64,000 nucleotides of DNA from Heliocidaris erythrogramma. Lineage: Eukaryota > Echinodermata > Echinoidea > Camarodonta > Echinometridae. The DNA is taken from assembly GCA_025617745.1 (NCBI GenBank), contig CM046857.1, positions 21,833,081 to 21,897,080 on the forward strand, read 5' to 3'. The translations under genes were made by a program, and so were the position numbers. The notes under the pieces are model-generated. The model made no database searches. It saw nothing but the letters and a program-made list of their open reading frames with translations, and was not told the origin of the DNA. This document shows positions 28,627 through 31,600 of this stretch, piece by piece; position 1 is the stretch's first letter, and each line of letters opens with the position of its first letter.

Positions 28627-28675
<49 letters not shown>

Positions 28676-31600
28676 CCATGGTGTACCTGCTCAATCCGAC
28701 CTTAGGTTTCGTGCCTCTCTCAAGACACTCCTCAGGGATAATGAGCTTGGCTTTGGTGTTCGGCATCTGCGATGCTTCCTGGATCGATTTCACGGTCTGG
28801 TGGTTTTCTTTTGGGACATTGTGTGTGCCTACATCCTGTTAGGATTTCAGCTCTTTTGTTTAGTGATTCTTTGTTCGCTATGATCAGAAGCTTTTCATCC
28901 ATGCACAAATTGCATTGGCCACTCTTTCTCCTAAGCAGGTTTGACTTTTTAGCAATTTCCCATGATAAGCTGTAACCCGTGTTTGATTTTTTCAATTCCC
29001 ATACATATTTAGATAGCTGGGTTTCCTTACTGTATTTCTCGTGGGTGAATGATTTAATATGATTCCTATAGCGCTCCTTGAAGGGCCCTCCCGCTAGACC
29101 AAAGTATGCCTTTTCCGTATTCCCATGGCGCACTGTCGCTTTGTACACAATAGCTTTCTCCAAACATTTTCCATTGAGTGGACATGCGGTTTTTTTGCAA
29201 TTGCATTTTCTCTCATTTGTGACTGTCGCTTTTGATTTCTCTATTACTCTTTTGTTATGTCCTTTTATTATCGAATCGATATTCCTCATACAACTGTAGC
29301 CCACTTTCAAAGTATTCTTATTGAAAATCTTATTGAGTTTGTGCCCCTTGGGGAAATGCTTTTCCACCAGTTTTAAGAATTTGCCCGCTATGTTGGTTTT
29401 AACATTAATGCTATATGGGGGGCTAAACCAAGTCACTTTCCTTCCTCGATTCTTTCTTTTTTTGTTGTTATTTTCATGGTTCTAGGTTTCCCCAAGGGGC
29501 ACAAACTCAATAAGATTTTCAATAAGAATACTTTGAAAGTGGGCTACAGTTGTATGAGGAATATCGATTCGATAATAAAAGGACATAACAAAAGAGTAAT
29601 AGAGAAATCAAAAGCGACAGTCACAAATGAGAGAAAATGCAATTGCAAAAAAACCGCATGTCCACTCAATGGAAAATGTTTGGAGAAAGCTATTGTGTAC
29701 AAAGCGACAGTGCGCCATGGGAATACGGAAAAGGGATACTTTGGTCTAGCGGGAGGGCCCTTCAAGGAGCGCTATAGGAATCATATTAAATCATCCACCC
29801 ACGAGAAATACAGTAAGGAAACCCAGCTATCTAAATATGTATGGGAATTGAAAAAATCAAACACAGGTTACCGCCTATCATGGGAAATTGCTAAAAAGTC
29901 AAACCTGCTTAGGAGAAAGAGTGGCCAATGCAATTTGTGCATGGATGAAAAGCTTCTGATCATAGCGAACAAAGAATCACTAAACAAAAGAGCTGAAATC
30001 CTAACAGGATGTAGGCACACACAATGTCCCAAAAGAAAACCACCAGACCGTGAAATCGATCCAGGAAGCATCGCAGATGCCGAACACCAAAGCCAAGCTC
30101 ATTATCCCTGAGGAGTGTCTTGAGAGAGGCACGAAACCTAAGGTCGGATTGAGCAGGTACACCATGGATTAATATGCTCTGCTGTAAGGCATAGAGCACT
30201 CTTTGGAAGTACTCAATATTTCAACTTTCGTATATATATATATATATATATATATTACGCTAAGGATTTGGGGCCTTTTTATGGTTCGAATAGGTGCCTC
30301 CCCTGGCCCTTTAGGGCCCCACCTTTTGGTACCCACGGGCGGGGAATGGTTCTTAGAGTGGTGGGCCTGGGAGGCACTTCTTAAGGGCTGACGTGCCGTC
30401 CATATTTCATAAATTCATTTTTAAACATTGAATTTCCGAAGGGAGTATCTGCCAACCCATGAAGCTGGTTTGTAGCTTTATGCACTCTAAAAACTCAAAT
30501 GTTAAATCTACATTTAAAAGGTTGGAGGAGTGACAACATTTTCAAAATGGTAAATGAACACTTTTAACATGCTGCATCCAACTTTTAAACTATTAGATCC
30601 AGCATGTTAAAAGTGTTAATTTACCATTTTAAAAATGTTGTCACTCCTCCAACCTTTTAAATGTAGATTTAACATTTGAGTTTTTAGTGTGTGCCCAACC
30701 CATACCCTTTACCTGCGAAGGGGAGAAACCTCAATTGGTGTGAATTGCCAAACAGCGTGACGTGTATACTCCAAGGCCATATCCGCATGTATGGCTTCAA
30801 CGTATACGACGCAACACACGTGTTATTCTCTTACACTACTATGTTTCACGCATAGAGATACATCATTTGTAGCTTCATGGTTACATACACACAGTTTAGG
30901 GGTTGCCACATCTAGCATAATTATGCTTTTTAGCACAATTTCTGAAAAGGAGACACTAAAATGCTGAGGACCTTTTTTTTTTTTTTTTTTTTGCTTGTCA
31001 GAGAATTTAGGACTGAAAATCGTTCCCAGGTGCCTGAGTTACGCTTCAAATGGATCTAGCATAATTTTTCTCAATTTAGCATAATTTGGGACGAGATTTG
31101 GAATTCCGATTTTTTGCAGCTGTGGCAACACTGACCGTCTACGATACGCGCTGTCGTTGACATGAACATTTTTGATCATGCGGGGTCAGCCAGGCATGGG
31201 GCGCGATCGACCGCGCCGGCCGGGCCCGGGAAGTTTGGAAGGCGGTGTGTGTACTTTTTTCGTCACGATTGTGGATTGCCAAAATGGAACAATTAAACCT
31301 CCGAAATTGCCACTTCTTCGTCTAAAGTAATTTTCAGATGATTTAATCCACATGCAATAGTTTTAGTCCACATCATCTATGTATACACTAGACCTATGTA
31401 TACACTAGACCTTAGTGCAGGGCTGTTTAACAGACTATAGAAGATTGAGCTTTCAGCACTATAGGTGTGATTTTGTGCATACTGTTTGTGTGTTCTTTAG
31501 CACTATATTGGTTGCCAAAGTGTTAGCAATAGTAGTGCCGTTTAGGGGCTCTAAAATGGGCTATTTAATGCTACACTGTTAAAAAATATGTGGGTATTTT

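What the first reader, a model, noticed from the sequence alone, without database searches (positions are those of the whole stretch)
28673..30175. Head-to-head Penelope-like pair, each copy with an intact-looking hammerhead ribozyme
Both copies end in a 58-base motif with every conserved hammerhead part: CUGAGGA, a 5-bp stem II, GAAA, a 2-bp stem III with UAA loop, and U-C before the cut. Stem I is 4+5 bp with a UU bulge. Penelope-like hammerheads are known, but here two identical copies lie in opposite orientations within one intron, so transcription from either strand makes one active-sense ribozyme. Gene B is transcribed through the left copy in its sense orientation, so its pre-mRNA could be cut in intron 2.
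Basis: partly seen in the sequence, partly recalled or inferred. Interest (0 to 1): 0.75.

Follow-up and report, generated by a model that had tools for sequence, protein, structure and literature searches.

The report
Inverted Penelope retroelement pair with ribozymes
A jumping gene landed in an animal gene's intron as two mirror-image pieces, each with a small self-cutting RNA motif; this mirror arrangement is how the family normally inserts, and here the two copies probably disable each other's ribozyme instead of cutting the gene's message.

Summary
Two near-identical copies (680 of 685 bp, opposite strands) lie in intron 2 of a minus-strand MFS-type gene, each with the same 58-nt hammerhead motif. 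Rfam's hammerhead models miss it, but a second repeat family in this genome has the same fold: 4 of 9 copies keep all 12 pairs, with four compensatory changes. The insertion is larger than reported: the right copy runs 66 bp further, to about 30237.

The pair is not special. It is one insertion of a young Penelope-like (PLE) family. Of 46 two-armed insertions examined, 43 (about 41 independent) join one 'short' and one 'tailed' end head-to-head; none has two alike. Head-to-head PLEs, optional tails, PLE hammerheads and their dimer action are in print.

The intron-cutting idea is weakened. The lone monomer is predicted to misfold. In gene B's transcript the antisense copy is made first and pairs with all 58 ribozyme bases (105 kcal/mol to free it).

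Possibly new: the strict one-short/one-tailed rule, which a published in vitro assay did not show, and a truncation hot spot at the ribozyme's 5' edge, read as the template RNA's start. No RNA data were available.

The parts
28672..29490 (-). left PLE copy (5'-truncated; ends at the short 'S' 3' end at 28672, then (TA)n)
29487..30237 (+). right PLE copy (5'-truncated; ends at the long 'L' 3' end, 66 bp beyond the S end, then (TA)n)
29487..29490 (.). head-to-head joint, 4 bp shared by both arms
   Evidence: (gap -4)
28689..28746 (-). hammerhead motif, left copy; predicted cut after 28698
   Evidence: identical to the right copy
30097..30154 (+). hammerhead motif, right copy; predicted cut after 30145
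30172..30237 (+). 'tail' between the S and L 3' ends, present in the right copy only; its last letters cannot be told from (TA)n
28732..29481 (-). C-terminal part of the PLE ORF (RT tail and GIY-YIG-like endonuclease, motif recalled), 249 aa; its TGA stop (28732-28734) lies inside CUGAGGA
29488..30111 (+). same ORF part in the right copy; TGA stop 30109-30111 inside CUGAGGA
28629..28671 (.). (TA)n flank, left
30231..30255 (.). (TA)n flank, right, overlapping the L end
25615..32879 (-). intron 2 of gene B (MFS-type, SLC16-like by recall; exon 2 ends at 32880, exon 3 starts at 25614)
   Evidence: MFS_1 match of gene B's long exon 30.9 bits, just under the cut-off 33.4, its paralogues 42 and 45.2

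Best explanation
One insertion of a young Penelope-like retroelement into a (TA)n microsatellite in intron 2. The element's enzyme opened both target strands, and each exposed 3' end primed reverse transcription of a sense element RNA at an internal start site: the short site S on one side, the tailed site L, 62-66 nt further 3', on the other. The two truncated cDNAs were joined head-to-head by a 4-bp overlap. Each cDNA carries the hammerhead because its cut site lies only about 28 nt 5' of S, so an inverted ribozyme pair is a by-product of this mode of insertion. The ribozyme is of the minimal type I PLE kind, expected to cut mainly as a dimer on tandem RNA. In gene B's pre-mRNA only one sense copy exists, and its own antisense, transcribed first, should lock it in a ~685-bp hairpin, so little cutting is expected. 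Shown here: anatomy, end rule, genome-wide recurrence, fold energies. Inferred: two-ended priming, dimer need, inertness in the intron.
For: Genome-wide end patterns: 60 L-ends and 39 S-ends left from 54 overlapping matches; all 33 S-L pairs within 15 kb face outward on opposite strands, and no L-L or S-S pair lies within 15 kb. In fetched loci 43 of 46 two-armed insertions have one S and one L end; L068 and L069 are unresolved, L070 has L and another end; none is L-L or S-S; 3 of the 43 are one event duplicated. Outer ends fixed, inner ends variable, (TA)n at both ends of the 9 complete insertions inspected from the hammerhead query. PMC11167929: a PLE protein cleaves and extends both strands from two internal start sites that define the 'tail'. 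PMC3846280: head-to-head is the most frequently observed inverted form. Fold energies. 84 of 86 arms of the 43 insertions cross the ribozyme cut site, so their templates were uncut there.
Against: No RNA or cleavage data. (TA)n flanks hide any target-site duplication. Pfam and PDB sequence searches find neither RT nor endonuclease in the intact 737-aa ORF, and the structure model failed (pLDDT 34), so PLE identity rests on architecture and recalled motifs. Dimer gain is not unusual against shuffles (286 of 300 gain as much), and the dimer fold is lost at 92 nt or more. Fold energies ignore co-transcriptional kinetics and protein help; the 2024 paper also mentions earlier self-cleavage of a PLE hammerhead in 3-25 mM Mg2+. 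Its in vitro assay saw no strand difference in start site. Of 16 one-armed insertions, 9 begin 3' of the cut site, so cut templates are not excluded for those, and L014, L015 and L020 lack (TA)n at their truncated end. Most loci were chosen through an L end followed by (TA)n.
Confidence: 0.75

Rival explanations
1. The left ribozyme cuts gene B pre-mRNA in intron 2 and alters its expression.
For: Intact motif in sense orientation inside intron 2. Intronic hammerheads exist in amniotes (PMC6155905, passages). A PLE hammerhead was seen to self-cleave in Mg2+ in earlier work cited in PMC11167929.
Against: Monomer predicted misfolded; antisense made first and fully complementary, 105.4 kcal/mol to free the ribozyme; the PLE hammerhead from Anolis did not cut without the element's protein.
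Confidence: 0.1
2. Head-to-head copies arise by self-priming: a cDNA folds back and copies itself (proposed for rotifer Penelopes, on an antisense template).
For: Many small insertions have nearly equal arms and palindromic joints; PMC3846280 makes this case.
Against: Fold-back predicts equal outer ends, but 43 of 46 two-armed insertions have one S and one L end and none has two alike; large insertions, this one included, have unequal inner ends with short overlaps.
Confidence: 0.12
3. Two separate insertions, or one copy inverted later by recombination.
For: Both copies could in principle come from different events; 5 differences in 685 bp.
Against: The same architecture with S and L outer ends recurs in about 41 independent places.
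Confidence: 0.03

Closest known systems
Canonical endonuclease-containing Penelope-like elements (Penelope/Poseidon/Neptune groups), e.g. rotifer Penelopes (PMC3846280, passages) and Anolis PAc (PMC11167929, section 3 and passages)
   Same: pLTR tandem and head-to-head inverted copies, optional tail on one inverted end, two internal RT start sites, AT-rich target, hammerhead beside the pLTR-ORF boundary
   Different: Here the tail is 62-66 nt (31 bp, and 30-40 bp, in the papers), the tailed/untailed pairing is strict in the sample, targets are (TA)n repeats and the L site itself holds TATATAT, and the ORF's stop codon lies inside the hammerhead core (in PAc the ORF starts at stem II)
Minimal type I hammerheads of PLEs (Cervera and de la Pena 2014; Lunse et al. 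2017; not held, seen only as citations and in reviews)
   Same: Short stem III, type I layout; pseudo-LTR location; proposed or shown dimer action
Metazoan non-LTR retrozymes (PMC7229834, passages)
   Same: Small tandem units with type I hammerheads; the 389-bp array at L009 resembles one in size
   Different: L009 is an internally deleted copy of this same PLE and its exact junction occurs at one locus only

Membership tests
Penelope-like element (EN-containing) | ORF with PLE-type RT and GIY-YIG endonuclease | tested here: inconclusive
   Intact 737-aa ORF in L012 with YRDD- and GIY-YIG-like motifs (motifs recalled); no Pfam or PDB hit naming either domain; model unusable
Penelope-like element (EN-containing) | Tandem copies forming pseudo-LTRs, and inverted head-to-head copies | tested here: met
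   2405-bp tandem unit; 46 of 63 rows two-armed and head-to-head
Penelope-like element (EN-containing) | Optional 3' 'tail' set by two internal RT start sites, AT-rich targets | tested here: met
   Fixed S and L ends next to (TA)n; that they are RT start sites is inferred
Penelope-like element (EN-containing) | Short target-site duplication | tested here: inconclusive
   Both flanks are (TA)n
Hammerhead ribozyme, minimal type I | CUGANGA, stem II, GAAA, UH before the cut, stem I | tested here: met
Hammerhead ribozyme, minimal type I | Conserved pairing with compensatory change | tested here: met
   Of 9 family-A copies parsed, 4 keep 12 of 12 pairs (L080, L084, L081+, L077-) and 5 break one to three; 4 pairs changed on both sides relative to the window. 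Both families come from one genome; common descent is not tested
Hammerhead ribozyme, minimal type I | Rfam covariance model score above threshold | tested here: not met
   No hammerhead hit for the window; family A reaches 22.9 bits against a cut-off of 34
Hammerhead ribozyme, minimal type I | Self-cleavage | not testable with these tools
   needs bench work
Metazoan retrozyme | Dispersed small tandem non-autonomous repeats | tested here: not met
   The exact 389-bp-unit junction occurs 8 times, all in one locus; the window copy is not of this kind

The most novel reading that the evidence does not exclude
Integration of this PLE is obligatorily asymmetric: one target strand must prime at S and the other at L, so the two halves of the integration complex are not equivalent. 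The element's RNA starts inside the hammerhead, at the A of CATTA 7 nt before CUGANGA, so that RNA promoted by the element itself lacks the outer half of stem I and is spared, while read-through or tandem RNA keeps the whole ribozyme and can be cut. The ribozyme would then tell the element's own transcripts from passenger transcripts.
Probability: 0.2. Interest if true: 0.65.

Novelty: new member of a known kind. Interest (0 to 1): 0.38.

Why it matters
How PLEs integrate, and what their hammerheads are for, are open questions (passages of the 2020 review, and the 2024 in vitro paper, say so). A young family with about 41 independent two-armed insertions gives two in vivo footprints that can be tested: a strict one-short/one-tailed rule on the two target strands, which the published in vitro assay did not show, and a truncation hot spot at the ribozyme's 5' edge. 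It also corrects an attractive but probably wrong inference: two intact ribozymes in one intron do not make a self-cutting intron when they are mutual antisense.

Tried and rejected
Rfam at gathering score and at E<=10: no hammerhead; the best match, MIR5048 (86.5 bits, cut-off 160), covers the centre of the long inverted repeat and I take it for that hairpin. Run-off of cDNA at the ribozyme cut site as in vivo proof of cleavage: three one-armed insertions begin at unit 2382 (cut 2379|2380; L055, L065, L066), but AT microhomology with the (TA)n flank explains this and two share a variant, so I do not claim it. Retrozyme family: rejected, one locus. Structure prediction of the window endonuclease part: pLDDT 34, no fold search run. 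Candidate hammerheads at L079 and L082: L079 lacks stem I by eye; L082 not analysed. Alignment A1 misaligned stem II, so pairs were counted in a script with the helices fixed by position. Circular-RNA template for tandem arms: possible, untested.

Counts dropped: L001-L008 (duplicates) and L011, L012, L013, L017, L018, L019 (superseded by longer fetches) were left out; of 63 rows there, 46 were two-armed, 16 one-armed and 1 (L073) unmatched. L014's inner end is printed as 2441 by a renumbering rule of my script; it is unit 36. Five of six unpaired S-ends were never fetched. End patterns require (TA)n after the end, so they cannot test target preference; that rests. The 60 hammerhead copies compared had to start with the exact first 11 nt, so change there is not counted.

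That the strict end rule and the hot spot are not in print is not shown: I saw no statement of either in the passages read after paper searches; searches added nothing on this (two returned no paper). Key older Penelope papers are not held.

Full report
WHAT IS THERE. The window is C5:21833081-21897080 of an unnamed assembly of 1.06 Gb in 26 contigs; that it is an animal is my reading of its genes and repeats. At 28672-30171 lies an inverted repeat with 685-bp arms and 5 differences. Against a genomic copy of the same element (unit of 2405 bp, L012:4870-7274), the left arm covers unit 1587-2409 on the minus strand and the right arm unit 1721-2471 on the plus strand; they share 4 bp at the joint. 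The left copy stops at a short end S (...CCATGGATTA), the right runs 66 bp further to a long end L (...CAACTTTCGTATATAT), and both then pass into (TA)n. BLAST places the S end at unit 2409 because a few (TA)n letters match by chance; the shared sequence ends at unit 2405.

THE ELEMENT. The arms encode the C-terminal part of a 737-aa ORF that is open in L012:5001-7214. Its motifs (FDIVDFYPSI, YRDDG, a Cys-rich stretch and a GIY-YIG-like KAIVYKATV...YFGLAGGPFKERYRNH) are those I recall for Penelope-like elements. Pfam and PDB sequence searches do not confirm this and a structure model was useless. The architecture does fit two papers: pLTR tandems, head-to-head copies, a tail, AT-rich targets and a hammerhead (PMC3846280, passages; PMC11167929, section 3 and passages). 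The ORF's TGA stop is the UGA of the hammerhead's CUGAGGA (unit 2343-2345). [quoted passage not shown] the Cys-rich stretch here could place this family there, untested.

THE RIBOZYME. The 58-mer has every core part. By descriptor it occurs in the window at these two places only, with 1 chance site in 100 x 128 kb; a looser pattern without pairing also matches four other places. Rfam gives no hammerhead hit. The free fold of 71 nt is more stable than shuffles (z -2.5) but is not the hammerhead. Independent support comes from a second repeat family in the same genome, found by a hammerhead pattern that excludes this family's N7=G: 82 matches against 10 for the reversed pattern, 73 of which I assigned by eye to one family ('A'). 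Family A scores up to 22.9 bits against Rfam's type I hammerhead, below the cut-off of 34. Relative to the window, family A changes four pairs on both sides (stem I U-A to C-G, stem II U-G to G-C and C-G to A-U, stem III C-G to A-U) and one pair on one side. Of 9 family-A copies parsed, 4 keep all 12 pairs and 5 have one to three broken. Within the window's own family, 56 of 60 selected 58-mers are identical and 4 have one change, which says only that the family is young.

DOES IT CUT? As a monomer the hammerhead fold is -13.0 against a minimum of -18.8 kcal/mol, with stem III pairs at probability 0.003. Two copies together fold, at 58, 64 and 71 nt, exactly into a double hammerhead (10 of 10 core bases free in each, 8 stem III pairs, 9+9 stem I pairs); at 92, 131 and 171 nt they do not, and the dimer's energy gain is ordinary against shuffles (286 of 300 as large). 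In a tandem RNA from L009 the cis-dimer costs 3.2 kcal/mol against 11.6 for two monomers. That PLE hammerheads cut as dimers is the title of Lunse et al. 2017, seen only as a reference in PMC7761336. PMC11167929 reports no cutting by the PAc hammerhead without protein, and also cites earlier self-cleavage of a PLE hammerhead in 3-25 mM Mg2+. In gene B's transcript the antisense arm comes first; all 58 ribozyme bases pair with it in the minimum-energy fold and freeing them costs 105.4 kcal/mol, against 5.8 for a single copy. By sequence the same order holds on the other strand. So each transcript does hold one sense ribozyme, but with its perfect antisense. A fast local fold before the hairpin zips up cannot be excluded. 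Even a cut intron may still be spliced (exon tethering; recalled).

THE ARRANGEMENT IS THE RULE. The 92-nt query found 119 candidates, 40 scored. Patterns for each end followed by (TA)n found 60 L-ends and 39 distinct S-ends (from 54 overlapping matches); 33 of 33 S-L pairs within 15 kb lie on opposite strands facing outward, with no L-L and no S-S pair; 27 L and 6 S ends had no such partner, several of the 27 because their S end did not fit the pattern. Three of the 43 share flanks and are one event. If ends were drawn independently at the observed ratio, 43 of 43 would have probability about 1.6e-14 (not corrected for the duplicated event). Family A shows the same geometry: 11 neighbouring pairs within 5 kb are -/+, none +/-, 2 same strand. 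PMC3846280 already calls head-to-head the most frequently observed form and the tail optional on one of the inverted pLTRs. PMC11167929 reports cleavage and extension of both strands, two start sites that bound the tail, and no apparent start-site difference between strands in vitro. The strict rule here suggests that in vivo the strands do differ, or that only S-L products survive.

MECHANISM. Outer ends fixed, inner ends variable, short overlaps at many joints and (TA)n on both sides of the 9 complete insertions inspected fit two-ended target-primed reverse transcription followed by end joining. Self-priming (PMC3846280) predicts equal outer ends and is disfavoured. 84 of 86 arms of the 43 insertions cross the ribozyme cut site, so their templates were not cut there, in line with the in vitro report that unprocessed RNA is the main substrate. 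Of 16 one-armed insertions, 9 begin 3' of the cut and say nothing on this point.

HOT SPOT. In 14 of 43 two-armed insertions at least one arm ends at unit 2335-2338, in 12 both do; after merging the duplicated event, 12 and 10, with seven different joints by eye. This is the A of GCTCATTA, inside stem I, 7 nt before CUGAGGA; it resembles an arthropod-type initiator (TCATT; recalled motif). Some family A arms also stop at or just before ATTACCC (few copies), but 20 copies carry GC before it, and the count without GC did not complete. I read the hot spot as run-off at the RNA's 5' end. Against: equal arms may instead reflect palindromic joining or spread of one small copy, PMC3846280 describes palindromes at pLTR 5' ends, and no RNA start is mapped.

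VERDICT. A real hammerhead pair in a Penelope-like insertion; ordinary for its family, probably inert in this intron, useful as one of about 41 footprints of how these elements integrate.

Noticed in passing
L009:1779-4909 (C11:19213.3-19216.4 kb): Head-to-head array of 389-bp units (start of the element fused to its last 197 bp with hammerhead), 4 minus and 4 plus junction copies, L and S ends; the only locus with this exact junction in the genome. Suggests a small tandem or circular RNA template.
   Followed up: partly
L077, L078, L080, L081, L083, L084: Second hammerhead family (73 sites), in part as tiny head-to-head pairs, with a GTACAC..GTGTAC stretch and often a TA-rich flank on the outer side.
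   Followed up: partly
window 13211-13546 (-): ORF with a 2A-like GDVETNPGP motif (recalled) ahead of LINE-like endonuclease and RT ORFs (10490-13269, -).
   Followed up: no
window 4840-8903, 24590-33836, 41765-43710, 61376-61678 (-): Array of related MFS-type (SLC16-like by recall) genes or gene parts with shared exon layout.
   Followed up: partly
window 40393-40971 (+): Tc1/mariner-like transposase fragment (name recalled).
   Followed up: no
window 30483-30691: Short inverted repeat, 99-bp arms 95% complementary, 11 bp apart, just right of the insertion.
   Followed up: no
L070:218-437: Insertion with an unusual outer end (unit 2563) and L, joined at the palindrome GCAGAGCATATGCTCTGC.
   Followed up: no
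L074, L075, L076: One small insertion with shared flanks at three places on C21, so a segmental duplication.
   Followed up: partly
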